Assembly: GCA_022450665.1 (NCBI GenBank)
Contig: JAKUPQ010000012.1
Span: forward strand, 1-39,710
Direction: 5' to 3'
DNA: 39,710 nucleotides
Source of the DNA: Alphaproteobacteria bacterium
Lineage (GTDB): Bacteria > Pseudomonadota > Alphaproteobacteria > Rickettsiales > VGDC01
The position numbers and the translations under genes are program-made. The first letter of the stretch is position 1. Each line of letters begins with the position of its first letter. Of the stretch, positions 10,950 to 35,302 are shown piece after piece. The notes beneath the pieces are model-generated. The model worked only from the letters and a program-made list of their open reading frames with translations. It had not been told where the DNA came from and did no database searches.

Positions 10950-11936
10950 ATGATGTTTTCTCAGCTTATCCATAAGCTTACTGCTGTAATAGCATTGGTT
11001 TTCTGCTTGGGTGTTATGTCAACACATGACGCATATGCGCAGGTTGAGCCAGTGAATGAAGGCACGCCCGAAGAAGTGACGGCACCTGCGTCGCCAATAG
11101 AAGCGGCGACGCCGGATACAATGCTGGTTCCTGCCGATAACAGCGCCGTAACCGAGGCAATGCGAGCCCAGCCGTGGCAGCTTGGCATGCGACCCGCCGC
11201 CAGCCCTGTGCAGGAACGCATTTTTGAATTTCACCACTATATGCTTATTCTGATTACTGTAGTGTCGGTATTTGTATTGGCGCTGATGATATATGTGTGT
11301 GTGCGCTTCAGCGAAAAAGCCAACCCCAATCCTAGCCGTGTTAGCCATAACACCGTGATAGAAGTGGTGTGGACAATATTGCCTGTGCTGATTTTGGTAG
11401 CGGTGTCCATTCCTTCGCTCCGCCATTTATATTATATGGATAAATCCGAGATTGAAGGCAAAGCTGACCTGACGATTAAAATTATAGGTTACCAGTGGTA
11501 CTGGAATTACGAATATCCTGATGCGGGAATAAAATTCGACAGCTATATGGTGCAGGAAGCCGACTTAAAACCTGGGCAACCACGCTTGCTTACGGTGGAT
11601 AATCCCATTTATGTGCCCGTAGGCAAAAAAGTGCGCATTCAGATGACTGGCGGCGATGTGATTCATAGCTGGGCCATGCCAAATTTTGGGGTAAAAATGG
11701 ATGCAGTGCCCGGCCACCTGAACGAAACATGGTTTCAAGCCGATATCGAAGGCACGTATTATGGCCAGTGTTCAGAGCTTTGTGGTGTGAATCACGGGTT
11801 TATGCCCATTATGGTGCATGTGGTTTCGCAAGAAGTTTATGATGCGTGGATCGAAGGCGCGAAAGAAGAGTTTGCCGCCGATAATTCACAATATTTCCCA
11901 CATTATTCCACACAGCAATTTGCTGCCATCCGCTAA
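10950..11936 (+). CDS. ctaC: Cytochrome c oxidase subunit II (CtaC/CoxB)
   Basis: A 328-aa subunit II of the aa3-type oxidase, which accepts electrons from cytochrome c at the dinuclear CuA site. An N-terminal signal sequence (about 1-30, ending AYAQ) precedes an Ala/Pro/Glu-rich linker, two membrane helices (about 92-114 and 135-155) and a periplasmic cupredoxin domain. CuA ligands are visible: H239 (IHSWAMP), C274, E276, C278, H282 and M285 (CSELCGVNHGFM). The aromatic electron-entry patch is QWYWNYEYP. The start has aggg seven bases upstream. It is the first gene of the oxidase operon; the 200-base gap to tldD should hold divergent promoters, which I cannot define with confidence. Confidence 0.97.
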   Translation: MMFSQLIHKLTAVIALVFCLGVMSTHDAYAQVEPVNEGTPEEVTAPASPIEAATPDTMLVPADNSAVTEAMRAQPWQLGMRPAASPVQERIFEFHHYMLILITVVSVFVLALMIYVCVRFSEKANPNPSRVSHNTVIEVVWTILPVLILVAVSIPSLRHLYYMDKSEIEGKADLTIKIIGYQWYWNYEYPDAGIKFDSYMVQEADLKPGQPRLLTVDNPIYVPVGKKVRIQMTGGDVIHSWAMPNFGVKMDAVPGHLNETWFQADIEGTYYGQCSELCGVNHGFMPIMVHVVSQEVYDAWIEGAKEEFAADNSQYFPHYSTQQFAAIR

Positions 11937-11977: not shown

Positions 11978-13573
11978 ATGAGTCACGACGCCACAACAGC
12001 CCATCACGACGATCACCATGCCCCTACCGGCATACGTCGCTGGTTGTTTTCAACCAACCACAAAGATATTGGTACGCTCTATCTTATCTATGCCGTGTTA
12101 GCCGGGCTTGTTGGCCTGACATTCTCGGTTATTATTCGTGCAGAATTGATGATGCCAGGCGACCAGATTTTTGGCGGCAACTATCAAATGTATAATGTGA
12201 TGGTAACCGCACATGCATTGTTCATGGTGTTCTTCTTGATTATGCCTGCGCTTATTGGCGGCTTTGGTAATTGGTTTGTACCCATTATGATTGGTGCGCC
12301 GGATATGGCGTTCCCGCGCTTGAACAACCTCAGTTTCTGGCTGCTGGTTCCGGCTTTCCTACTGGTATTAGGCTCGGCATTTGTTGGCGAAGGTCCCGGC
12401 ACAGGCTGGACGTTGTATCCCCCGCTATCTACCAAAGGCTCTCATCCCTCCATGGCGGTGGATATGGGTATTTTTGCTCTTCACCTTGCAGGGATTTCCT
12501 CGATTTTGGGCGCGATTAATTTCATTGTTACTATTTTTAACATGCGTACCCCGGGTATGACATTGTTCAAAATGCCTTTATTCGTATGGTCGATGTTGGT
12601 AACCACCTTCTTGCTGCTATTGGCAGTGCCAGTATTAGGCGGCGCGATTACCATGTTGCTGACAGACCGGAATTTTGGTTCCACCTTCTTTAGCCCCGCT
12701 GGCGGCGGCGATCCGGTGTTGTTCCAGCATTTATTCTGGTTCTTTGGCCATCCTGAAGTATATATTTTGATTCTGCCCGCATTCGGTATTGTATCCGAAG
12801 TGGTGTCTACCTTCTCCCGCAAACCGATATTTGGTTATCTTGGTATGGTGGGCGCTATGGTAGCCATTGGATTCCTTGGGTTTGTGGTGTGGGCACACCA
12901 TATGTTCACTGTGGGTATGGGTGTGAATGTACGCGCCTATTTCATGATTGCCACTATGGTAATTGCAGTGCCAACCGGTATTAAAATCTTTAGCTGGATC
13001 GCCACAATGTGGGGCGGCTCCATACGCTTTACGGTGCCAATGATGTATGCGTTAGGATTTATTTTCCTCTTCACCGTGGGCGGTGTAACTGGCGTAGTGC
13101 TGGCAAACAACCCGATTGACGTTTATATGCACGACACCTATTACGTCGTGGCGCATTTCCATTATGCAATGTCCTTAGGGGCGCTGTTTGGAGTGTTTAC
13201 CGGATTTTATTACTGGTTTGGCAAAATGTCTGGCTATAAATATCCTGTGGGACTGGCAAAGCTACAATTCTGGCTGTTATTTATTGGTACAAACCTGACA
13301 TTCTTCCCGCAGCACTTTCTGGGATTAGCGGGTATGCCCCGCCGTATACCGGATTATCCTGATGTATATGCCGGTTGGAACTATTGGTCATCCATTGGTT
13401 CTTATATGGGCGCTGCCTCTGCTGTATTGTTTTTGGTAGTGGTATTTGTGGCATTTACCCGCAAAGTTCCTGCTGGCATGAACGAATGGGGTGAATGCGA
13501 GAAAACACTGGAATGGACGGTGCCGTCTCCACCTGATTTCCATACATTTGATGAGCTGCCTAAGCTGCCATGA
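11978..13573 (+). CDS. ctaD: Cytochrome c oxidase subunit I (CtaD/CoxA), aa3 type
   Basis: The 531-aa catalytic subunit with about 12 membrane helices, reducing oxygen at the heme a3-CuB centre. All metal ligands can be read: H79 (TAHALFM, heme a), H258 ([10 protein letters not shown], CuB), H307-H308 (WAHHMFTVG, CuB), H393 (heme a3) and H395 (heme a) in [11 protein letters not shown]260 and Y262 of the HPEVY segment are present; the tyrosine is the one cross-linked to CuB histidine in A-type oxidases. Conserved K-channel and D-channel surroundings indicate an A1-type proton-pumping enzyme. Ribosome site aagagg is five bases upstream. It follows ctaC by 41 bases. Confidence 0.98.
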
Positions 13574-15036: not shown

Positions 15037-15633
15037 ATGGTGACTCAAAATTCAAAAAAACAAAGCAACACCTCGCTTACACTAAGCCTTGTAGCAATTG
15101 TTCTGGGCATGACAATGCTGACCGCCTCGGCGGTGCCACTATATAATATGTTCTGCCGCATTACCGGCTATGGTGGCACAACGCAAGTAGCAGAAATCGC
15201 GCCCGATGCGGTGACATCCCGCAAAATGGAAGTGCGTTTTAATACCGATGTGCAAAAAGATATGCCGTGGCACTTCAGAGCCGATCAAGGAACAGTCACG
15301 GTAAATATTGGCGAGGAGCGGCTTATAAGCTTTTCTGCCCGCAATGATGGCGATGTGCCGGTGTGGGGAACCGCGATTTATAATGTTACCCCCCACAGTG
15401 CGGCAGAGTATTTCAGTAAAATACAGTGCTTCTGCTTTGACTCGCAACGCTTGGATCCGGGGCAGGAAATGCACATGCCCGTATCATTTTTTATCGATCC
15501 GCAAATTATGGATGACCCTTATTTGCAGGATTTAGAAACTGTAACCTTGTCATATACGTTTTTTTTGAGTAAAAACCAAAGTGATGAAACTAGCGGCTCG
15601 CTGGGGCAACCCTCAGAAAAAGCCGATTCTTAA
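15037..15633 (+). CDS. ctaG: Cytochrome c oxidase assembly protein CtaG (Cox11 family)
   Basis: A 198-aa copper chaperone that delivers copper to the CuB site of subunit I. It has an N-terminal membrane anchor (about 16-37) and then a periplasmic immunoglobulin-like domain. Landmarks are PLYNMFCRITGYGGTTQ, IGEERLISFSARN and the copper-binding KIQCFCF, followed by the family-typical PVSFFIDP and TLSYTFF. The ATG at 15037 has aaaggg seven bases upstream. It begins 19 bases after the coxF-like ORF and ends 21 bases before ctaE. Confidence 0.96.
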   Translation: MVTQNSKKQSNTSLTLSLVAIVLGMTMLTASAVPLYNMFCRITGYGGTTQVAEIAPDAVTSRKMEVRFNTDVQKDMPWHFRADQGTVTVNIGEERLISFSARNDGDVPVWGTAIYNVTPHSAAEYFSKIQCFCFDSQRLDPGQEMHMPVSFFIDPQIMDDPYLQDLETVTLSYTFFLSKNQSDETSGSLGQPSEKADS

Positions 15634-15654: not shown

Positions 15655-16479
15655 ATGTCAAATGCCCATGAGCAGAAACATCCCTTTCACCTCGTAGACC
15701 CAAGCCCATGGCCGCTTGTAACCTCGATGGTATTGCTGTTGTTGGTTAGCGGCGGATTGTTGTTTATGCACCAAAAGCCAGGCGGCGCTGTAATGCTTGG
15801 CCTTGGCTTCATCGGCGTGTTGGGCGTAATGTTTGGCTGGTGGCGCGCCGTGATTCGCGAAGGTTTATACGACCATGCCCATACTGGTGCAGTACGCCAT
15901 GGTTTGCGTTGGGGCATGGCCTTGTTTATCACCTCTGAAGTAATGTTTTTTGTGGCGTTTTTCTGGGCGTTTTTCAATGCCGCGCTCTTTCCAACAATAC
16001 CTCTTGAAGGAGCATGGCCCACATGGGATGGTGCCGTATGGCCACCGGCAGCGGTAGAAACATTCAATGCGTGGGATCTGCCCTTAATGAATACGCTGAT
16101 TCTCCTTCTATCCGGCACCACGGTATCATGGGCGCACCATGCGTTGCTGCAAGGTAAGCGCGATGAAGTGATTAAAGCGCTGACCATTACAGTGGCACTG
16201 GGTTTTATATTCACCTGCCTGCAAGCAGTGGAGTATCATCACGCAGCCTTTGGCTTTAAAGATGGCATTTATCCTTCTACCTTTTATATGGCGACAGGGT
16301 TTCATGGATTCCATGTGATTGTCGGAACAATTTTTCTGGCAGTATGCTTAGTGCGCGCCCGCAATAATACCCTGACCGTAGAAGGGCATTTGGGCTTTGA
16401 ATTCGCTGCATGGTACTGGCACTTTGTAGATGCGGTATGGCTGTTTTTGTTCGTATGCATCTATTGGTGGGGCAGTTGA
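15655..16479 (+). CDS. ctaE: Cytochrome c oxidase subunit III (CtaE/CoxC)
   Basis: A 274-aa subunit III with seven membrane helices, which stabilises proton uptake by subunit I. Typical stretches are KHPFHLVDPSPWPL at the N-terminus, GMALFITSEVMFFVAFFWAFF, WAHHALLQG, the ATGFHGFHVIVGT helix and the final WHFVDAVWLFLFVCIYWWGS. Ribosome site aaggag is eight bases upstream. It is the last structural subunit of the operon; surf1 follows after a 175-base gap carrying a strong hairpin. Confidence 0.97.
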   Translation: MSNAHEQKHPFHLVDPSPWPLVTSMVLLLLVSGGLLFMHQKPGGAVMLGLGFIGVLGVMFGWWRAVIREGLYDHAHTGAVRHGLRWGMALFITSEVMFFVAFFWAFFNAALFPTIPLEGAWPTWDGAVWPPAAVETFNAWDLPLMNTLILLLSGTTVSWAHHALLQGKRDEVIKALTITVALGFIFTCLQAVEYHHAAFGFKDGIYPSTFYMATGFHGFHVIVGTIFLAVCLVRARNNTLTVEGHLGFEFAAWYWHFVDAVWLFLFVCIYWWGS

Positions 16480-16654: not shown

Positions 16655-17437
16655 ATGACAAAACCCTCCACGCCTAGCGATGACGCTCGCCCCACGGTGG
16701 AAATAGGCGTATTTACGTTTTATAAGCCCACCAAAGGCCCTATCCTGATTACTATTTTGTTGGTGGGTTTGTGTCTGGTATTGGGAATCTGGCAGATTCA
16801 GCGATTGCAGTGGAAGCAAGGGTTGATTGCTGAAATGCAGGCCGCTACGCAAGAGCGTATTATAAAAGATACGCTGCCAAAAGATTTGAACAGCTTGCAA
16901 CAAAATAACTTTTACGCGATTGTTTTGCCCGGCGAATTTATGCACGAACATGAAATGCACATGATTGGTCGCAGCATCAATGGCCAACCAGGATATAACG
17001 TGCTAACCCCATTTCGTATTGCCGATGACGGACGAATGATTCTGGTGAACCGTGGCTGGATTCCGCAAGATAAGAAAAAGCCCGAAGACCGTCCGGAAGA
17101 TGTGCGTTTCGGCGGCATTGTTTTCGCTAGCGGATTTGTGAGTGTGCCGCAGGGGGGCAGCATGTTTTTGCCGGATCACGATGTGGCCGGTAATGTTTGG
17201 TTTTGGCCTGATATTGCCCGCATTAATAAAGAAAAAAATCTCGATCTTCCGCCAGTAGTAATCGAATCTGTGAATGCCAACCCTGTCCCCGATACGTTGC
17301 CTATTGCGCGTACGGGTGTGAATGTTGAGCTACGCAACGACCATTTGAACTATGCGCTGATGTGGTTTAGCCTGAGCTTTGCAGGATTGGTGATTTTCTT
17401 TATCTACCACCTGAAATCTGTCAAGGGTGAAGAGTAA
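16655..17437 (+). CDS. SURF1-family oxidase assembly protein
   Basis: A 260-aa inner-membrane protein of the SURF1/Shy1 family, which helps insert heme a/a3 into subunit I. Two membrane helices flank a periplasmic domain: the first (about 30-48, ILITILLVGLCLVLGIWQIQR) carries the family pattern GxWQxxR, and the second is near the C-terminus (YALMWFSLSFAGLVIFFIYH). Inside are GYNVLTPFRIADDGRMILVNRGW, the core family signature, and GVNVELRNDHLNYALMW. Length is normal. The start has only a weak ribosome site (ggaa). The family's common neighbour DUF983 is absent between ctaE and this gene. Confidence 0.93.
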   Translation: MTKPSTPSDDARPTVEIGVFTFYKPTKGPILITILLVGLCLVLGIWQIQRLQWKQGLIAEMQAATQERIIKDTLPKDLNSLQQNNFYAIVLPGEFMHEHEMHMIGRSINGQPGYNVLTPFRIADDGRMILVNRGWIPQDKKKPEDRPEDVRFGGIVFASGFVSVPQGGSMFLPDHDVAGNVWFWPDIARINKEKNLDLPPVVIESVNANPVPDTLPIARTGVNVELRNDHLNYALMWFSLSFAGLVIFFIYHLKSVKGEE

Positions 17438-26658: not shown

Positions 26659-26685
26659 GCGATTTGGGCAATATCCATAAATCGC
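26659..26685. promoter_or_regulatory. Inverted repeat in the divergent lipoprotein/transporter promoter region
   Basis: Arms gcgattt (26659-26665) and aaatcgc (26679-26685) are perfect complements with a 13-base spacer. It lies 31 bases before the lipoprotein start on one side and 160 bases before the transporter on the other. It could be a regulator-binding site or a 5'-UTR hairpin; no regulator is identified. The rest of this 218-base gap shows no gene. Confidence 0.35.
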
Positions 26686-26846
26686 ATACGGTTTATACTT
26701 TGTCGTTGGCATTATCCCTCGAGAGGCATCTGCGCATGGGAGTCAAAAATATTCACAGAATGTGTGGTACTGTTATTTCACATAATCTCGCCATTATCAA
26801 TAGCGCGCCACGCATAAATAGGCTATCAGCAATACAGGAGATAGCT

Positions 26847-27761
26847 ATGACCCCAACCAGCGGGAATAATTCGTTACAACAGATTCATGCCGAGGCTGCC
26901 GGCGAAAAAAGCCACATGATGAAGCGTGCAAGTTTGCTGACGCTCAGCGGCGTAAGCTTTCTGATTATTATCAAGTTAGTGGCATGGATTATGACGGGGT
27001 CGTTAAGCCTGCTATCTTCGCTGGTGGATTCTGCTATGGATTTATTGGCCAGCCTAAGCAATTATTTTGCTATTCGCTATGCGTTGGTGCCACCGGATAA
27101 CGAGCATCGCTTTGGCCACGGCAAGGTAGAATATATCGCCGGAATGGGGCAGGCGCTGTTTATTAGTATTACGGCGCTGATTGTGGCGGCTGAAGCAGTG
27201 CATCGTTTTTTTGCGCCGGTTCCGGTACATGAAAGCGAAGTGGGAATAGTTGTAATGCTTATTTCCATTGTGGTGACGTTGGGAATGGTGTTTTACCAGA
27301 AAAAAGCTATTGCCCATACCGACTCCACCGCAGTGAAAGCGGATTATGTACATTATGTTATGGATGTGCTGGCGAATGGAGCGGTGATCATCGCGTTGCT
27401 ATTGGTGTCTGGTTTTGGATGGATATGGGCTGACCCGCTCTTTGCACTAGCAATCGCGGTGTATATCCTTAAAGGCGCGTGGCAGGTAGGTGTGACCTCA
27501 TTTCAGAATTTAATGGATCATGAGTTCGATACCTGTGAGCGCGAACGTATTGCCGAGGTGGTGCTTGCCCACCCACAGGTAAAAGGGTTGCACGAGCTTA
27601 AAACCCGACGCTCTGGTTTGCTGGCATTTATTCAATTGCATATTGATGTGAGTGGCGATTTAAAACTTATTCAAGCGCATGCAATTACCGAGCAGGTAGA
27701 GGCCAATATTCGCCAGCTGCATCCAAATGCCGAGGTTTTAATTCATACGGATCCGGTATGA
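26847..27761 (+). CDS. Cation diffusion facilitator, FieF-like (Fe/Zn efflux)
   Basis: A 304-aa metal/proton antiporter. Six membrane helices are followed by a cytosolic metal-binding domain (about 220-304). Transport-site ligands D61 and D65 (DSAMD) and H169 and D173 (HYVMD) correspond to D45, D49, H153 and D157 of E. coli FieF with a constant offset of 16, giving the Zn/Fe-type DD-HD site. The motif HRFGHGKVEYIA between helices 2 and 3 is also typical. The ATG at 26847 has aggag six bases upstream; the frame is open to 26664 but upstream residues are not family-like. Its 3' end overlaps the convergent gene by 19 bases. Confidence 0.93.
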   Translation: MTPTSGNNSLQQIHAEAAGEKSHMMKRASLLTLSGVSFLIIIKLVAWIMTGSLSLLSSLVDSAMDLLASLSNYFAIRYALVPPDNEHRFGHGKVEYIAGMGQALFISITALIVAAEAVHRFFAPVPVHESEVGIVVMLISIVVTLGMVFYQKKAIAHTDSTAVKADYVHYVMDVLANGAVIIALLLVSGFGWIWADPLFALAIAVYILKGAWQVGVTSFQNLMDHEFDTCERERIAEVVLAHPQVKGLHELKTRRSGLLAFIQLHIDVSGDLKLIQAHAITEQVEANIRQLHPNAEVLIHTDPV

Positions 27762-29152
27762 GAGGTGTCTGTAGACTTCGATTTACGGCGAATAGCAATA
27801 ATTACCAGCACCACAAACATTGCGCCGCCGATTACCGCCAAACCACCGCCAACGCGCATGACCTGTAAGGCACTGTGCATGGCTTCGGGAGCAGAATCTG
27901 CCGCGCCCACAGCTTTGCGTTCTGCACCATACCCACCGGCAATGGCAAACCCCACGGCATGCAAAACCGACCCGCCGCCATAAAGCAAAGGCTGGATAAT
28001 GGCTGCGTTGGATCGCAGTGGTGAGGCATAGCCAAGGCGCGGAAGCAGCAGATAAATAACCCCCATAAATGCCACGGTGGTTCCCACTATCGAGCCGTGG
28101 TAATGGGCGGGAATAATGGTGTTGGTGCCGGAAATCATATAGCCGATTACACCGCCTACCAAAAACACAGCCATAGAAGTGACTAGGCATATCCATGGTA
28201 GCCGTTGTTCGCAATCAGGCTTGCCGGATTTTATCAAACGCCATGCGAGGTACAGTCCTAATAATATGGCAGCGCTTCCTCCGCCATGACGCATTTGCTG
28301 TGTATAAAACTCCAAATTATAAGGAGCGCTGTTGCCAACAAATCCCAACGGCGAAGTGAGGGCGATAAGCGGATAAATGCTGAATAGCCCCAATAATAAA
28401 CGTTTATTGATAGAGATATTCAATCCTGCCGCACTGCCTAGCCACAGCCACGCCACCAGCAATAGCTGTGTATAGGCAAGCTGCAAGATGTGACCGCCTG
28501 CCCAAAAGATTATTTCATAATAATTTTGGGCAGCGCCGGGGCTTAAACTAGCATCGGGCATGGGTAGACGTATATAGGCCCAACCAAAATGTGCTAAGGC
28601 CACCAATACAATAAATGCACTGCCTAAAATACCAAAATGCTGGGCGCTTTGTGCGTTAGAAAGCGCTATTGAGCCATTGCGCGATAAACGAATATCTAAA
28701 ATTCCGCAGAGCAGAGCAATTGCCATAAGCCCTAACCCAACCAAAAAAAGCGGTGAAGTGTACATAGGAATGTAATTGCTGAATAACGCGGTGCCATTAC
28801 CCATGAGGGGCGCGCCTGCCACACAGAGCATACCCATGGCAAAGCTGACAATGGCCGCTTCACGCAAGCCATAGATACGCGGATGACGGGGTTGGGTAAA
28901 GAGCGACCACATTAATAGCGCAATCGCCAGAAACCAGGCTACTGCTGATAAGTTAACATGCACTACTAATGCTTCGGCAAAGCTGGATTTGATAAAAGAT
29001 TTTTCGGCAAAGCGTGACGCCCTGCCAGCGAGAAGTATTAATGGCCCTAAGCCAGAAATAGCCAATGTAGCCACTGCCAGCCACAGCCAATAGCGGGTGG
29101 TGCTAGTGGTGTTTGATGAGGAAAATGGGAGAGAAAAATCTGGTTTTTCCAT
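27743..29152 (-). CDS. Heme-copper-oxidase subunit I-like membrane protein
   Basis: A 469-aa protein with about 12 hydrophobic helices. By eye it aligns with heme-copper oxidase subunit I: H65 (VVHVNLSAVAWF, low-spin heme ligand position), H221 (FWAGGHILQLAY, equivalent to FGHPEVYIL), H289 (MRHGGG, in place of the CuB His pair) and H350/H352 (IPAHYHGSIVG, equivalent to AHFHY). The cross-link Tyr and the E of HPEVY are missing and only one His stands where two CuB ligands are expected. No subunit II or III accompanies it. It diverges from ctaA and sits in a heme locus. It may be a NorB-like or redox-sensing relative or a heme-handling protein. Ribosome site ggag precedes the start. Confidence 0.75.
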   Translation of the reverse strand: MEKPDFSLPFSSSNTTSTTRYWLWLAVATLAISGLGPLILLAGRASRFAEKSFIKSSFAEALVVHVNLSAVAWFLAIALLMWSLFTQPRHPRIYGLREAAIVSFAMGMLCVAGAPLMGNGTALFSNYIPMYTSPLFLVGLGLMAIALLCGILDIRLSRNGSIALSNAQSAQHFGILGSAFIVLVALAHFGWAYIRLPMPDASLSPGAAQNYYEIIFWAGGHILQLAYTQLLLVAWLWLGSAAGLNISINKRLLLGLFSIYPLIALTSPLGFVGNSAPYNLEFYTQQMRHGGGSAAILLGLYLAWRLIKSGKPDCEQRLPWICLVTSMAVFLVGGVIGYMISGTNTIIPAHYHGSIVGTTVAFMGVIYLLLPRLGYASPLRSNAAIIQPLLYGGGSVLHAVGFAIAGGYGAERKAVGAADSAPEAMHSALQVMRVGGGLAVIGGAMFVVLVIIAIRRKSKSTDTSHTGSV

Positions 29153-29240
29153 GGGCGCTCCGCTATAGTATGCCTGATTTAAAGGCAGAGCTTAGAGCGT
29201 GGCCTTTTTTATTTCCACAAATTTATCAGATTTATCCGTT

Positions 29241-30347
29241 ATGCACGCGTCTTTACGCCGACAATTGGCTATCTGGCTGTTTTTGACAGCGGGATTTGTG
29301 TTTATCATGATTGTGGTGGGCGGACTTACGCGGCTTACCGAGTCTGGGCTTTCAATTGTAGAATGGAAGCCCGTTAGCGGCACGCTGCCGCCACTGTCCT
29401 CTGAAGCATGGCAAGAGGAGTTCTCGGCCTATCAGACCAGCCCCCAATATCAAAAAATTAACCACGGTATGACACTGGAGGAGTTTAAGGGAATTTTCTG
29501 GCTGGAATATTGGCATAGGGTAGGAGGGCGTTTGATAGGCATAATCTTTTTACTGCCTATGTTGTATTTTATGCTTCGCCACCGCTTGCCGCCGTGGGTA
29601 AAGTGGCGCGTAACGGGTATTTTTGCGCTGGGTGGGCTGCAAGGTGCCATTGGTTGGTACATGGTTAAAAGCGGATTGGTGGATATGCCTCACGTCAGCC
29701 CTTATCGCCTTTCTTTACATTTGGGCGTGGCGTTTTTAATTATGGCAGCTTGTATTTGGGTGGCGCGGGAAATTCTGGATAATCGCGCTGAAACTTCATG
29801 CGTGGCTTCGCCTAAAGCTGCATCGGCTCTGGCAGCGCTGGTATGCGGATTTACTTTTATTCAGGTGGTGCTGGGTGCATTGGTTGCAGGTCTGGATGCA
29901 GGGCTAACCTTTAACACCTTTCCTTTGATGGATGGCCGGTTTGTCCCGAAAGATGTGTATATGCTGGAGCCACTATGGCGTAATCATTTTGAAAATATTG
30001 CAATGGTGCAGTTTCAGCATCGTATAGGAGCGTATATTTTAACGGCGCTGATTGGTTTTTTTGTATTTATCGCATGGCGAAGTGCAAACAATACTAGAAT
30101 GAAAGTGCAGCTTGTGCTAATGGTAGCGCTCTTGCTGCTGCAAATTGTGCTTGGCATAAGCACCTTGTTACTGGTTGTGCCAATAGTACTCGCCTCTAAA
30201 CATCAGGCGGTGGCAGCTATACTTTTCGCCCTGACTGTATGGGTGTGGTATGACTTTAATCGCTTGACCAAGCAGGCGAAAAAAGATGGGAAGCCAGTTG
30301 CCGCTGGCATGGAAGCAAAATGGCAAACTGCTGCAACAAAAAATTGA
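29241..30347 (+). CDS. ctaA: Heme A synthase CtaA (COX15 type)
   Basis: A 368-aa membrane enzyme that oxidises the C8 methyl of heme O to give heme A. It has eight membrane helices in two four-helix halves. Landmarks are GGLTRLTESGLSIVEWKPVSG, FWLEYWHRVGGRLIG (heme-ligand His), LHLGVAFLI, and in the second half FNTFPLMDG, VQFQHRIGAYIL and the KHQAVAAILF helix. These mark the mitochondrial/alphaproteobacterial COX15 class. The start is uncertain: ATG at 29241 fits the family N-terminus but lacks a ribosome site; a GTG at 29199 would add 14 residues. hemA follows 53 bases downstream. Confidence 0.95.
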   Translation: MHASLRRQLAIWLFLTAGFVFIMIVVGGLTRLTESGLSIVEWKPVSGTLPPLSSEAWQEEFSAYQTSPQYQKINHGMTLEEFKGIFWLEYWHRVGGRLIGIIFLLPMLYFMLRHRLPPWVKWRVTGIFALGGLQGAIGWYMVKSGLVDMPHVSPYRLSLHLGVAFLIMAACIWVAREILDNRAETSCVASPKAASALAALVCGFTFIQVVLGALVAGLDAGLTFNTFPLMDGRFVPKDVYMLEPLWRNHFENIAMVQFQHRIGAYILTALIGFFVFIAWRSANNTRMKVQLVLMVALLLLQIVLGISTLLLVVPIVLASKHQAVAAILFALTVWVWYDFNRLTKQAKKDGKPVAAGMEAKWQTAATKN

Positions 30348-30400: not shown

Positions 30401-31615
30401 ATGAAATATGATTACGAAGCGCAGTTTCAGACCGCTATTAATGCACTGAAAAGAGAAGGCCGCTACCGTGTATTTATGGATCTAACCCGCCATGCGGGAA
30501 ATTTCCCTAATGCCACCGATGAGCGTAACGGCGAAGATATTACCATTTGGTGCAGCAATGATTATTTAGGCATGGGGCAACACGCCAAAGTGTTGGATGC
30601 AATGCATAGCACTATCGCCCGCATGGGCAGTGGCGCAGGTGGAACACGCAATATTTCCGGCAATCACCATAGCGTGGTGCAGCTTGAAAAGACACTGGCG
30701 CAGTTGCATCATAAGCAAGCAGCGCTGGTATTTACCAGTGGCTATGTAGCGAATGAAGCTTCCTTGAGCACACTTGGAAAAACCTTGCCAAACTGCGTTA
30801 TTTTTTCCGATGAATGTAATCACGCCTCTATGATTCACGGCATCCGTAATAGCGGTGCAGAAAAGCATGTGTTCCGCCATAATGACGTTGCGCATCTGGA
30901 ATCACTGCTGCAAAAAACCGACCCTTCGCGACCAAAAATTATTGCCTTCGAGTCGGTGTATTCCATGGATGGGGATATTGGGCATATCGAGAAATTTTGT
31001 GATCTGGCTGATAAATACGGAGCCATGACCTATCTGGATGAAGTGCATGCGGTGGGCATGTATGGCGAGCATGGTGCAGGTATCGCCGAGCGCGATGGGC
31101 TGATGGATCGTGTTACGCTCATTCAGGGAACTTTGGGCAAGGCGTTTGGGTTGATGGGAGGGTACATCACCGGCTCTGAGCGCATGATCGACATGATCCG
31201 TTCTTACGCGCCCGGATTTATATTTACCACAGCAATGCCCCCAGCGCTGGCGGCAGGTGCGCAAGCCAGTATCGAACATTTGATGCATAGCAATGCCGAA
31301 CGTGAAGGGCAGCGCCGCGCCGTGGCAGAAGTCAAGACACGTTTGCGCGATGCTGGTATTCCGATGCTGGAAACCGAAACCCATATTGTGCCTGTGATGA
31401 TTGGCGATCCGGTATTATGCAAACAGGCTTCGGATATGTTGCGCGAGCATTATAATATCTATGTGCAACCGATTAATTTCCCTACTGTGCCCCGTGGTAC
31501 AGAGCGGTTGCGCATTACGCCGTCACCTTTGCACAGCGCCGAACAAATCGATCAGTTGGTGAATGCGCTAATTGGGATTTTTGCCGAATTGCGGCTGGAG
31601 CGCATTGCGGCCTAG
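30401..31615 (+). CDS. hemA: 5-aminolevulinate synthase HemA (Shemin pathway)
   Basis: A 404-aa PLP enzyme that condenses glycine with succinyl-CoA to 5-aminolevulinate, the first heme step in alphaproteobacteria and mitochondria. It shows [49 protein letters not shown] and the PLP lysine K247 in [15 protein letters not shown]. The C-terminal [16 protein letters not shown] is also typical. Length matches the bacterial enzyme without the heme-regulatory leader of mitochondrial forms. It follows ctaA, so heme supply and heme A synthesis are linked here. Its presence is one of the best arguments for an alphaproteobacterial host. Confidence 0.97.
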
Positions 31616-31737: not shown

Positions 31738-33618
31738 ATGATAAAAACACCAAAATGGTTGGAGCGACTTACTGCCGGCGGCATAGCTGCGTCGATAATT
31801 GGTGCCGGAACGAATGTTGCCGACCATTTGTTTAACCATTATGGCGATGCTGGCAAACCCGGCGCGGTAATGGATTTGAACGAAAATAATGGCATGCTGG
31901 TGCGTGACATTAGTGGCAAGCCTGCTTTCTCCAATTATTTTAAAAGCGATGATCCTTCGGATATGCGCATAAGCATAAGCATCGCTACCGATGAAGAAAT
32001 TCCCGAAAATTTTACAAATAAATGGGGGCAGCTCACAAAACTGCGTCAAAAAAATATTTCTTCCCGACTTCCTTCTGAAGACTTTCGGCCTATTTCTCCC
32101 CAACTTGCAGAAGTTATTGAAGATACATATGCGCAAATAACAAAGTTTACGAATATCAAATTTGATGTGCAGCACAATAATAATGATGCCGATATAATTG
32201 TTGGGGGCTACGCCACAGATACAACAATTACTGGATTCGCCAGTTTTCCGCAGGAGCTGTTGAAGGGGTTAACCCGTAAAAAAGATGAACAAGGCTTTTT
32301 GATTCTTAATGCGGCAGAAATGGATAGAAGAATTGATAGTGGCAATAAAGACGGTGCGATGCACACGATTGCCCATGAAATTGGTCACAATTTAGGTATA
32401 CTTCATCCATTTGATCGCCATGTAGATACCGCACTTACTGACCATCAGCAAGAAGCTATATCTACCATGGCGTATACAAGCTCCACACAAAATAGCATTG
32501 CTTCTACTGATATAAAATCTGGCTATGGCGCGTTGGATATTAATATCTTGCGCAAAGCAGTAGTAGAGCTAGGCGGCGAGGTGCCAAAGCTGAATGAGGA
32601 AAATAACACCTATTCTTTAGGCCAACTGGCTGAAGACCAGCAGAAGGATACAAAATCAACCTTTGGCGGAAGCGTATATTCGCTACCTGCTGCCACGGTA
32701 GTGGATAATGGTGGCGCCACCAATACACTCACGGGAACATCAGGCGATGACTTGCTGGTAACCGAAGCTGGAGATTGCGGGCTTATTAACCGTAACGATA
32801 AAAAAGCACGTATTGAGCGTGATGGGCAAGCCTATTGCCTTGTGGAGGGGGAGTTTTCGATCATTAAAAGCGGCTCTGGTGATGATCTGATTATTACTGC
32901 CGCAAACGAAGAACAAACCGTTTATACCCGAACGGGCAAGCAAGATGTTGCCGTATTTGAGACAGGTGACCTCACCCTTTCTGCCTCACCCCGTATAGAG
33001 GCATATGAAGATAAAAATATAGCGCAACAACTAACAAGTCTTTTCGCTGACCCTGTAACAGCAGGTGGCAATCGTGGAAAAGAAGACCTGACTTCCATAA
33101 CGCTGCATCATTCATTGTTTCAAGATGCGGATGCAATGGCGCATGAAGAAGGTAATGACATAAAAATTAATTTTACAGCAGAATCCGGACGTGACACAGG
33201 TTCCATTACAATCAAAAACCAAACATTAGATTTGCAGGGTGTGGATCAGCTACGTGTAATTAACGACGAAGGCGATGTGATTTCACAAATTGATAGCTTT
33301 GATTATAAAACCGCAGAACAATGGAATAGCGATGTGCTTGCACCAACCCAACAAGCGGTACTTGCATACCAACACCAATTGGATGCGAGTGAACAGGATC
33401 GCGACTCGGAAGATACAGTTCGAGGAGCAATGCAGAAATATGTTGGAGCTCAAGGGGTATGGACAAGAGTACCAACGAATAATGGCAATTCACATACAGC
33501 CGAAAGCGGCGCGCCTCCAATAAAGAAAGATGCGGATGCTGTGAATGAGCTTCCATTTGCCACAAGAATTACAAGACAAAAAAACGAGGAAAGAAATGGC
33601 TCAACAGTTTCAATTTAA
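31738..33618 (+). CDS. Metzincin-type zinc metalloprotease with RTX-like segment (serralysin-like)
   Basis: A 626-aa protein. The zinc site HEIGHNLGILH is at residues 213-223 (HExxHxxGxxH), with the Met-turn STMAYT at 242-247, so this is a catalytically plausible metzincin near M10/serralysin. A hydrophobic Gly/Ala stretch at residues 11-25 is not a classical signal peptide. Residues 325-400 contain two RTX-like half motifs (LTGTSGDDLLV and IKSGSGDDLIIT), separated by an insert bounded by C347 and C367. The rest (400-626) has no recognised fold; the end is charged. Ribosome site agga is seven bases upstream. The last 23 bases overlap the next gene, a paralogue. It is probably exported (inference from RTX-like motifs). 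Substrate unknown. Confidence 0.8.
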   Translation: MIKTPKWLERLTAGGIAASIIGAGTNVADHLFNHYGDAGKPGAVMDLNENNGMLVRDISGKPAFSNYFKSDDPSDMRISISIATDEEIPENFTNKWGQLTKLRQKNISSRLPSEDFRPISPQLAEVIEDTYAQITKFTNIKFDVQHNNNDADIIVGGYATDTTITGFASFPQELLKGLTRKKDEQGFLILNAAEMDRRIDSGNKDGAMHTIAHEIGHNLGILHPFDRHVDTALTDHQQEAISTMAYTSSTQNSIASTDIKSGYGALDINILRKAVVELGGEVPKLNEENNTYSLGQLAEDQQKDTKSTFGGSVYSLPAATVVDNGGATNTLTGTSGDDLLVTEAGDCGLINRNDKKARIERDGQAYCLVEGEFSIIKSGSGDDLIITAANEEQTVYTRTGKQDVAVFETGDLTLSASPRIEAYEDKNIAQQLTSLFADPVTAGGNRGKEDLTSITLHHSLFQDADAMAHEEGNDIKINFTAESGRDTGSITIKNQTLDLQGVDQLRVINDEGDVISQIDSFDYKTAEQWNSDVLAPTQQAVLAYQHQLDASEQDRDSEDTVRGAMQKYVGAQGVWTRVPTNNGNSHTAESGAPPIKKDADAVNELPFATRITRQKNEERNGSTVSI

Positions 33619-35302
33619 AAATAATAACTATGAATACCTTATTGCTAAAGCCAGTGGGCAAACGCACATATATCTTCCCGGTGGTGGTGGCGGTGGCGGC
33701 GGATCTGGCGGCGGTATAATGGCGGGTATTGCTGCCACTGTGGCAGCAGGGGCTGCAGCATTGGGTCTGGGCATTGCAGGACACGATCAGAATCAAGATC
33801 CCAGGGATATTGAAGAGCTTACCAAATTTGATAAAGGTGAAGAACCGTTGAAAGATTCCAATGGGGATCTTGCCTTTGCCAATTATTTTGAGGACGGCGT
33901 AGCCGATGAAGATAAGGTGCTCAAGGTAAGTCTTGCCACCAAGCTACCTCAGGAGTTTAACAATGGTACACAAATTGGCGATTACCTTGATTCGGTAGTA
34001 AATAATTCCCGCAGCCACACCACACGCGTAGAGCCATATTGGACAACGGTGTGCCACACCCGTGGCAGCGGAGAAACCACATATACTGAGTGCACCCCTG
34101 AGCTTCGCACACGTATTGTGACGGATCATCACCACTATAGTGAACGGTTGGATATAGATAGCGATTTTCGACCAACCACCGAGGCACAAAAAGAGCAACT
34201 CGAAAAATATTTTGAAGCATTTTCTGACCTTACCGGCATTAAAGTAGAGGTGGGAGAGAATTTAGAAGATGCAAATATATATATCGGTAATTTTTCTAAT
34301 CCACCCAACAACTATCGTGGCCGGTTGGATTATGTGGATCCATCGTTTGTGGCAAGCTACCCCGAAGGTTCAGTGACTGACAGAGGCCCGGGTTTCGAAC
34401 GCAATGTGCTTTTGCTCAATGATATGAACAGAGCCCACGATGAAGGGTTGGGCGAGCATATAGGACGCCCTTTAGGGTTTGAAAGCGGCAAAGTAAATGG
34501 TGTAACGCTGCGTGATTCACTTAAAAAGATGGGTTTCCCCGTTAAAGCTTTGGCAGTTGAAGACAATGTCTATGATGCGGAGAATATTCCTAACGTTAGC
34601 CCGGAATTGGTTGATAAAAATGTAGTGGCCGATGGTGGTGGTGTAAACAAGCTGATAGGGACCGATGGCAATGATGTTCTGGTGGTTGGTGAAGATGAGT
34701 GCGGCTATACCAAAATGCCGAAAAACAAGCTAACCAATATTGCATCAAATGGCAAAAAATACTGCATTGCAGAAGGAGACATAAGCGTTGTAAAGGGGGG
34801 TGAAGGTGACGACTTGCTTATAATTGATAAAGGCAGCGACACCACATTTGAAACCGGACCGGGCGATGATCGTATTACGCTGTATCGCAGCAATATAGGC
34901 AATGCCACAATTTTGTCTAACCCAGATGAAGATGGCAAAAATACGCTGTATCTCAGTGAAAGAAATGCCAGTCGGGGAGAAATCGTTGCCAATATACAAG
35001 AAGGCGAAATGGAGTTGAACTTTATCGAGAACAAGCATGTTGTCGGTACGGTTACCTTACCCCATCAAACCGAGGGCGGAGGAATTGATAAGATCGCCGT
35101 GGTAAAGGATAATGGAGATGAAATTTTCAAAACTGATGTAAAGAACATCACAACCGCGCAAGAGATGAACGAGAAAGTCTTGGAGCCAATGGCACAAGAA
35201 GTAAAAGCGCATATCGCAGAGCAAAATGCACAAGCTGCGCCTGGTAGATGGAGTATGAAAATACAAGATATAAAGGACATAGGCCCTAAAGTGCAGCTAT
35301 AA
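33596..35302 (+). CDS. Inactive paralogue of the upstream metzincin (pseudoprotease) with poly-Gly linker
   Basis: A 568-aa protein starting at the ATG at 33596, with gagga five bases upstream, inside the end of the protease gene. A poly-Gly tract (about residues 29-40) leads into a hydrophobic segment (IMAGIAATVAAGAAALGLGIAG) that could be a membrane helix. It shares with its neighbour the motif LAFANYFEDG (AFSNYFKSD there), a long middle region, and the paired RTX-like motifs LIGTDGNDVLVV and VKGGEGDDLLII around cysteines 369 and 390. Where the protease has HEIGHNLGILH this protein reads EHIGRPLGFES: all three His positions are changed and the Met-turn part is missing. It may be a partner, inhibitor or scaffold for the protease. 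Confidence 0.75.
   Translation: MAQQFQFKNNNYEYLIAKASGQTHIYLPGGGGGGGGSGGGIMAGIAATVAAGAAALGLGIAGHDQNQDPRDIEELTKFDKGEEPLKDSNGDLAFANYFEDGVADEDKVLKVSLATKLPQEFNNGTQIGDYLDSVVNNSRSHTTRVEPYWTTVCHTRGSGETTYTECTPELRTRIVTDHHHYSERLDIDSDFRPTTEAQKEQLEKYFEAFSDLTGIKVEVGENLEDANIYIGNFSNPPNNYRGRLDYVDPSFVASYPEGSVTDRGPGFERNVLLLNDMNRAHDEGLGEHIGRPLGFESGKVNGVTLRDSLKKMGFPVKALAVEDNVYDAENIPNVSPELVDKNVVADGGGVNKLIGTDGNDVLVVGEDECGYTKMPKNKLTNIASNGKKYCIAEGDISVVKGGEGDDLLIIDKGSDTTFETGPGDDRITLYRSNIGNATILSNPDEDGKNTLYLSERNASRGEIVANIQEGEMELNFIENKHVVGTVTLPHQTEGGGIDKIAVVKDNGDEIFKTDVKNITTAQEMNEKVLEPMAQEVKAHIAEQNAQAAPGRWSMKIQDIKDIGPKVQL

What the first reader, a model, noticed from the sequence alone, without database searches (positions are those of the whole stretch)
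27743..29152. Orphan heme-copper-oxidase-like subunit I beside heme A synthase
Histidines at five of six expected ligand positions are retained (H65, H221, H289, H350, H352), but the cross-link Tyr and one CuB His are absent, and no partner subunits are adjacent. It diverges from ctaA-hemA. It could be a heme-only sensor, a NorB-like enzyme or a heme-handling factor.
Basis: partly seen in the sequence, partly recalled or inferred. Interest (0 to 1): 0.55.

Follow-up and report, generated by a model that had tools for sequence, protein, structure and literature searches.

The report
Copper-less oxidase look-alike beside ctaA
This gene makes a membrane protein built like the core of cytochrome oxidase that keeps its heme-holding histidines but has lost the copper site; it travels with real heme-A or heme-O oxidases and the genes that mature them, so it is more likely a helper of such enzymes than a respiratory enzyme in its own right.

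Summary
The ORF at 27743-29152 (minus, 469 aa) is a real, conserved heme-copper-oxidase (HCO) subunit I homologue: AlphaFold model with 12 helices (pLDDT 89.4), Z about 30 to aa3 COX1. Four of six canonical ligands remain (H65, H221, H350, H352), not five; H289 is unconserved. Both His of the CuB pair and the polar catalytic position are lost across 122 family members. The family ("P") is present in 88 of 131 genomes of the window's order (Rickettsiales by record titles), 85 of which have an aa3-like COX1, and in 0 of 18 with only cbb3 or bo3. In Pseudomonadota, 28 of 29 genomes with an sNOR-like NO reductase carry P, often as last gene of norII-norI-cyoE-sco-cytb-fixH-P; elsewhere it sits in aa3 operons or beside ctaA. 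The window holds a complete coxBA-ctaB-ctaG-coxC-surf1 cluster 10 kb away. Best reading (0.45): a CuB-less HCO paralogue serving maturation of heme-A/O oxidases. Main rival (0.25): a heme-only NO-binding protein. No function was tested. My paper searches showed no description of the family, but the paper defining sNOR/gNOR/nNOR was not seen.

The parts
27743..29152 (-). P gene: CuB-less HCO subunit I paralogue, 469 aa, 12 predicted helices
   Evidence: ORF; profile and fold matches to COX1; model
28958..28960 (-). codon of H65, low-spin heme ligand position (His in 122 of 122 relatives)
28481..28492 (-). codons of H221 to Q224: H221 is the one kept CuB-ligand position, Q224 is shared with sNOR; next residue (H+4, catalytic Tyr/Gln position) is Leu here, Phe in 108 of 122
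28340..28345 (-). codons of G270-F271, columns of the lost CuB His-His pair
28097..28105 (-). codons of H350-Y351-H352: high-spin heme proximal and low-spin heme ligand positions (both His in 122 of 122)
27959..27961 (-). codon of H398, His in 115 of 122 P proteins and in none of the commonest states in the sNOR-like group
27914..27919 (-). codons of R412-K413, aligned with the propionate-binding Arg-Arg of COX1 (role recalled)
29199..30347 (+). ctaA, heme A synthase, divergent from P; gap 46 bp from the GTG start (88 bp from the in-frame ATG)
   Evidence: Pfam COX15-CtaA E 3.4e-111; ORF
30401..31615 (+). hemA-like 5-aminolevulinate synthase (name recalled)
   Evidence: Pfam Aminotran_1_2 E 3.3e-71; conserved neighbour
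10950..11936 (+). coxB, aa3 oxidase subunit II
11978..13573 (+). coxA, aa3 oxidase subunit I; the only Pfam COX1 match of this genome
13603..14610 (+). ctaB/cyoE, heme O synthase (UbiA family)
15037..15633 (+). ctaG/cox11, CuB assembly factor
15655..16479 (+). coxC, aa3 oxidase subunit III
16655..17437 (+). surf1, oxidase assembly factor

Best explanation
P is a paralogue of HCO subunit I that kept both heme sites (bis-His H65/H352, proximal H350, the Arg/Lys pair 412-413) but lost the CuB His pair and the polar catalytic residue, and now serves the maturation of heme-A/O-containing HCOs: the aa3 oxidase in Rickettsiales, the sNOR-like enzyme or an aa3-type oxidase elsewhere. Most likely it sits in the membrane with CtaA/CtaB and apo-subunit I and holds or passes heme O/A, or steadies a late assembly step. 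Shown: fold and kinship, ligand loss, family conservation, co-occurrence with aa3 or sNOR, gene linkage to ctaA, cyoE and SCO. Inferred: that it binds heme at all, that the heme is O or A, that it acts in biogenesis, and the order of steps.
For: (1) 12-helix HCO fold: pLDDT 89.4, Z 30.8, 429 aligned residues. (2) H65, H221, Q224, H350, H352, R412, K413 in 122 of 122 P proteins; HH columns never HH; H+4 Phe in 108 of 122 where sNOR has Gln in 38 of 38: heme sites under selection, O2/NO-reducing centre gone. (3) Order: 85 of 88 P+ genomes have aa3-like COX1, 84 of 88 have CtaA; 10 aa3-like genomes lack P; 0 of 18 genomes with only cbb3 or only bo3 have P. (4) Of 84 genomes with both, P lies within 700 bp of ctaA in 44. 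(5) Outside Rickettsiales P shares operons with two different HCOs, sNOR-like and aa3-like; in 73 named loci of 6 kb or more, cyoE or ctaA is present in 63, SCO in 51, a second HCO-I in 38 (32 sNOR-like, 6 COX1-like). (6) L192: P2 lies in DUF420-P2-ctaB-coxB-coxA-ctaG-coxC; DUF420 is CtaM, an oxidase biogenesis factor in Firmicutes (PMC4958251, PMC9145763, PMC13344008, passages read). (7) The window genome has one PF00115 HCO, its aa3, and no sNOR match.
Against: P is not needed everywhere: 10 aa3-like genomes of the order lack P (2 of them, G002 and G056, at least 95% complete), and one Rickettsia-like genome (G034) has a broken P but keeps ctaA and COX1. Alphaproteobacterial sNOR-like genes mostly occur without P and the Defluviimonas plasmid operon has none within the stretch read. 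Of 58 P+ Pseudomonadota genomes, 9 showed neither sNOR nor an A-type COX1, three of them at least 96% complete (G418, G430, G516). SURF1 and CtaG already stand in the window for heme and CuB insertion. Co-occurrence can also mean that P only needs heme A as its own cofactor. Genomes in the tests are related, so the Fisher P value overstates the evidence. No biochemical datum exists.
Confidence: 0.45

Rival explanations
1. P is a heme-only HCO relative that binds NO (or CO/O2) at its high-spin heme: a scavenger, buffer or sensor that protects the neighbouring heme-A/O enzyme.
For: 28 of 29 sNOR-like genomes among 398 Pseudomonadota carry P; nirS within the stretch in 15 of 73 named loci; truncated hemoglobin directly beside P in L173 and hemerythrin in a related sNOR operon without P. 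Intracellular Rickettsiales meet host NO (general knowledge).
Against: In the window's order P follows aa3 and ctaA and is absent from cbb3-only and bo3-only genomes, which NO also inhibits (inhibition recalled). The window genome has no sNOR match and no other PF00115 HCO. No sensor output domain in P.
Confidence: 0.25
2. P is a structural or electron-carrying extra subunit: its bis-His low-spin heme relays electrons (for example from the cytochrome b-ferredoxin protein of the operon) to sNOR or aa3.
For: H65/H352 invariant; operon with a cytochrome b-4Fe4S fusion.
Against: The cytochrome b-ferredoxin gene was not found near Rickettsiales P; aa3 structures of many bacteria have no such subunit (general knowledge); a second, high-spin heme site would not be needed.
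Confidence: 0.15
3. P is an independent enzyme that needs heme A or O, for example a heme-only reductase or peroxidase.
For: Heme sites kept; co-occurrence with ctaA (84 of 88) would follow from the cofactor need alone; H398, Y408, Q395 and M287 are P-specific and conserved.
Against: No own subunit II or cytochrome c partner in Rickettsiales neighbourhoods; the catalytic pocket residue at H+4 became Phe; P is tied to other HCOs in operons.
Confidence: 0.1
4. P is a functional terminal oxidase or NO reductase with an unusual metal site.
For: Same fold; one CuB His (H221) kept; Y at the second HH column in 93 of 122.
Against: Two of three CuB His missing in all 122 and no conserved replacement ligand trio; single subunit.
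Confidence: 0.05

Closest known systems
HCO subunit I, A/B family (aa3 COX1, Thermus ba3)
   Same: 12-helix fold, bis-His heme positions, proximal His, Arg-Arg/Arg-Lys pair
   Different: about 12-16% identity; no CuB His pair, no cross-link Tyr; shorter (469 against about 530-570 aa); not with its own subunit II
sNOR-like NO reductase subunit I (label from PMC8756737 table passage and by operon likeness; norSY-senC in PMC4940428)
   Same: closest HCO clade found; shares Q224, Y127-x-P129, T284; often in the same operon
   Different: sNOR keeps His-His (38 of 38) and Gln-Gln-x-Asn after the helix VI His; P has neither
CtaM / DUF420 oxidase biogenesis factor
   Same: genomic behaviour: co-occurs with aa3 and ctaA/ctaB, sits next to ctaB/ctaA, multi-spanning, conserved His; DUF420 stands directly beside P2 in L180 and L192
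   Different: CtaM has 4-5 helices and is another family; 0 of 80 order genomes tested have a DUF420 over the cut-off, so P does not depend on it
SURF1 and CtaA
   Same: heme A synthesis/insertion partners near P in the window and in many genomes
   Different: unrelated folds; both present in addition to P
NnrS and cNOR/NorB
   Same: membrane heme proteins of NO metabolism (recalled)
   Different: no Pfam, NCBIfam or PHROGs family at a useful E-value for P0001; best PDB sequence matches are ba3, not NorB

Membership tests
HCO superfamily subunit I | 12-helix COX1/NorB fold | tested here: met
HCO superfamily subunit I | low-spin heme bis-His (helices II and X) | tested here: met
   H65 and H352, 122 of 122; alignment to ba3
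HCO superfamily subunit I | proximal His of the high-spin heme | tested here: met
   H350, 122 of 122
HCO superfamily subunit I | three His for CuB/FeB | tested here: not met
   only H221; HH columns never HH in 122
HCO superfamily subunit I | actual heme binding | not testable with these tools
   needs purified protein
A/B-type oxygen reductase | cross-linked Tyr four residues after the helix VI His | tested here: not met
   Leu225 here; Phe 108, Tyr 5 of 122
sNOR (B-family NO reductase) | His-His pair plus Gln/Asn-type active-site residues | tested here: not met
   clade separate from the 9 sNOR-like rows, SH-aLRT 99 for that group
cNOR/qNOR (NorB) | Glu after the helix VI His and FeB His trio | tested here: not met
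   no Glu at H+4, no His pair
CtaM (DUF420) | Pfam DUF420 over cut-off, 4-5 helices | tested here: not met
   13.5 bits against a 30.5 cut-off; 12 helices
HCO biogenesis factor (as a function) | loss impairs holo-oxidase formation | not tested
   only co-occurrence and linkage

The most novel reading that the evidence does not exclude
A whole family of HCO subunit I paralogues gave up copper and catalysis and became a dedicated heme-O/A chaperone or assembly template for other HCOs, shared by aa3 oxidases and sNOR-type NO reductases and kept in reduced genomes of Rickettsiales.
Probability: 0.35. Interest if true: 0.78.

Novelty: new variant of a known kind. Interest (0 to 1): 0.6.

Why it matters
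How heme O and heme A get from CtaB/CtaA into subunit I is an open question; a 2022 review (PMC9145763, passages read) expects further, unidentified assembly proteins. A conserved, unnamed HCO-fold protein without CuB that tracks heme-A/O enzymes and touches ctaA is a concrete candidate, testable by gene removal in laboratory denitrifiers. It also warns annotation pipelines: 7 of 9 relatives scanned pass Pfam COX1 and could be counted as oxidases or NO reductases, which they cannot be without a metal pair.

Tried and rejected
Single-sequence searches gave nothing useful: Pfam best hit DUF2721 below cut-off, NCBIfam, PHROGs, PDB phmmer none, genome contigs with one sequence none; only profiles worked. 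Rejected: H289 as a ligand. Rejected: a CuB pair displaced in sequence: 10 of 122 have an HH in residues 250-292; the 8 I printed carry it about ten residues downstream of the CuB columns, and the other two (L108, L113) are not among the 12 sequences with His at column 271. Rejected: DUF420/CtaM as an obligate partner (0 of 80 over the cut-off, 2 weak matches). In one search the iterated norI and cox1 models also caught P itself, so their counts (72 and 35) are not used; one search recounts with single queries. In one search the presence lists and the sorting of COX1 hits into aa3-like, cbb3-like, cyoB-like and degenerate were typed by hand; G102 was put among cbb3-only although it shows two COX1 fragments (303.7 and 215.7 bits) that look like a split aa3 gene; it and G026 carry P and are left out of the '0 of 18'. 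G034's broken P is counted as present. From the 61 matches I dropped three before counting 58 P+: G532 (only the sNOR cross-match), G494 (fragment) and G722 (78.7 bits). The 80 named loci are the best matches only, so their context is not a random sample. The tree is a quick one with long branches (L050, L044). Paper searches that did not show this family; the original sNOR/gNOR/nNOR paper is not among the results, so I cannot say whether it mentions P. PMC10390337 passages do not mention it.

Full report
What is there. The ORF at 27743-29152 on the minus strand is intact and encodes 469 residues. Its 3' end overlaps a convergent cation-efflux gene (26664-27761) by 19 bp and its start lies 46 bp from the divergent ctaA ORF. 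Alone it matches nothing useful in Pfam, NCBIfam, PHROGs or the PDB by sequence. With relatives it becomes clear: a profile of 38 homologues finds Thermus ba3 subunit I in the PDB (E 6.6e-11), several relatives score above the Pfam COX1 cut-off (for G088 64.2 bits), and the AlphaFold model (62-row alignment of the window protein and named loci; pLDDT 89.4, pTM 0.92, twelve main helices) matches COX1 chains at Foldseek E 7e-7 and VIA Z 30.8 over 429 residues. So the protein is an HCO subunit I homologue by sequence profile and fold.

Ligands. In alignments with ba3 and with sNOR-like proteins, H65 and H352 fall on the low-spin heme ligands, H350 on the high-spin proximal ligand and H221 on the first CuB ligand (ligand roles in ba3 recalled). 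All four are invariant in 50 of 50 order homologues and 122 of 122 family members. The CuB His-His pair falls on columns 270-271: G-F in the window protein, His-His in 38 of 38 sNOR-like proteins, never His-His in P (12 of 122 have His at 271 alone). The position four residues after H221, Tyr in oxidases and Gln in sNOR-like proteins, is Phe in 108 of 122 and Leu here. P has its own conserved residues: W22, N126, M287, Y351, Q395, H398 (115 of 122), Y408, K413. Heme sites are thus kept under selection while the dinuclear centre is gone; that heme is bound is inferred.

Distribution in the order. The order is Rickettsiales by the titles of records that share contigs with G023, G076 and G102 (L097, L101, L156); the identification of family f12 as Rickettsiaceae is my inference from genome size and repeat inserts. 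P is found in 88 of 131 genomes, CtaA in 95 of 131, a COX1-family match in 117 of 131. Sorted by hand into aa3-like and other COX1 types: P+ with aa3-like 85, P+ without 3 (two drafts at 75-77% completeness and G102, whose COX1 looks split), P- with aa3-like 10, P- without 33; Fisher P 1e-18, overstated because genomes are related. Leaving out G026 and G102, 0 of 18 genomes with only cbb3 or only bo3 carry P. P with CtaA: 84, without 4; CtaA without P 11. Of the 84, P lies within 700 bp of ctaA in 44, within 5 kb in 5, farther in 18, on another contig in 17. The window genome has a single PF00115 match, its aa3 coxA.

Outside the order. A profile scan of named genomes returned 80 loci, mostly Beta- and Gammaproteobacteria, also Nitrospirae, Nitrospinota and Magnetococcales titles. 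In many of them P closes an operon: cupredoxin subunit II, sNOR-like subunit I, cyoE, SCO, cytochrome b-ferredoxin, a small membrane protein, P, with nirS nearby. In 73 loci of at least 6 kb: cyoE or ctaA in 63, SCO in 51, ctaA in 33 (27 within 1.5 kb), nirS in 15, DUF420 in 4; a second HCO subunit I inside the stretch in 38 (32 sNOR-like, 6 COX1-like), none seen in 35, many of which are cut by stretch ends. Among 398 Pseudomonadota genomes 29 have the sNOR-like protein at E up to 1e-60 and 28 of these have P; the exception, G532, is 69% complete. Of 58 P+ genomes, 28 have sNOR; G000 and G023 have aa3; of the other 28, 19 have an A-type-like COX1 of 530 aa or more and 9 show neither, three of them at least 96% complete (G418, G430, G516). 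In one gammaproteobacterial family P and ctaA overlap by a few bases (L174). In Alphaproteobacteria a divergent form (P2) stands in DUF420-P2-ctaB-coxB-coxA-ctaG-coxC (L192) or behind DUF420 (L180). Against a strict link: sNOR-like genes of other Alphaproteobacteria mostly occur without P.

Tree. In a quick tree of 52 rows the nine sNOR-like rows form one group (99) and all P one group (94); Rickettsiales P is one clade except L026, which groups with a Pseudomonadales P (L142, 99), a likely transfer. P therefore is an old paralogue near the sNOR branch, not a recent decay product of aa3 coxA. One Rickettsia-like genome, G034, has a broken copy (a frame change and missing middle) while ctaA and COX1 are intact, so P is dispensable there.

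Function. Two facts must be joined: P goes with two different catalysts (aa3 and sNOR) that share heme O/A and SCO-dependent copper, and P itself keeps heme sites but no copper. The simplest joint reading is a maturation role: holding or passing heme O/A, or acting as an assembly partner of subunit I, next to CtaA/CtaB. The published parallel is CtaM/DUF420, which co-occurs with aa3 and ctaA/ctaB in the same way and was first proposed as a heme chaperone, later as a late-assembly or copper-export factor (PMC4958251, PMC9145763, PMC13344008; passages read). The order genomes tested have no DUF420 over the cut-off (0 of 80). The rival that P binds NO rests on the sNOR/nirS context; it explains the Rickettsiales pattern less well but is not excluded. 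I give 0.45 to maturation, 0.25 to NO binding, 0.15 to an extra subunit, 0.10 to a separate enzyme, 0.05 to an unusual oxidase or NOR.

Known or new. The fold and superfamily are known; a CuB-less family of this breadth is not described in what I could search. sNOR as a label rests on a table passage in PMC8756737 and on norSY-senC operons in PMC4940428. I therefore file it as a new variant of a known kind.

Noticed in passing
L037, L040, L041, L035 (Rickettsia-like P genes; alignment A1): P proteins of the f12/g13 genomes carry in-frame loop inserts such as SFPRKRES...RGND, like Rickettsia palindromic elements (name recalled), up to three in one gene, with all heme ligands kept.
   Followed up: partly
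L043:3529-4750: Broken P gene in G034 (frame change, middle missing) while ctaA and COX1 remain intact.
   Followed up: partly
L026 / L070 (G041): A P of the order that groups with a Pseudomonadales P and lies next to ctaA, cox1 and cyoE: likely gene transfer.
   Followed up: partly
L192:470-7620 and L180:5643-7440: Divergent alphaproteobacterial P2 directly beside DUF420 (CtaM-like), in L192 inside a full aa3 operon.
   Followed up: partly
L126:3867-5486 and relatives: Cytochrome b fused to 4Fe-4S and FlpD-like domains as a constant member of the sNOR-like operon.
   Followed up: no
31738-35302: Two tandem, partly similar large proteins (shared motif NTLTGTSGDDLLV-like; the first with weak M10/M12 metallopeptidase matches) downstream of hemA.
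   Followed up: no
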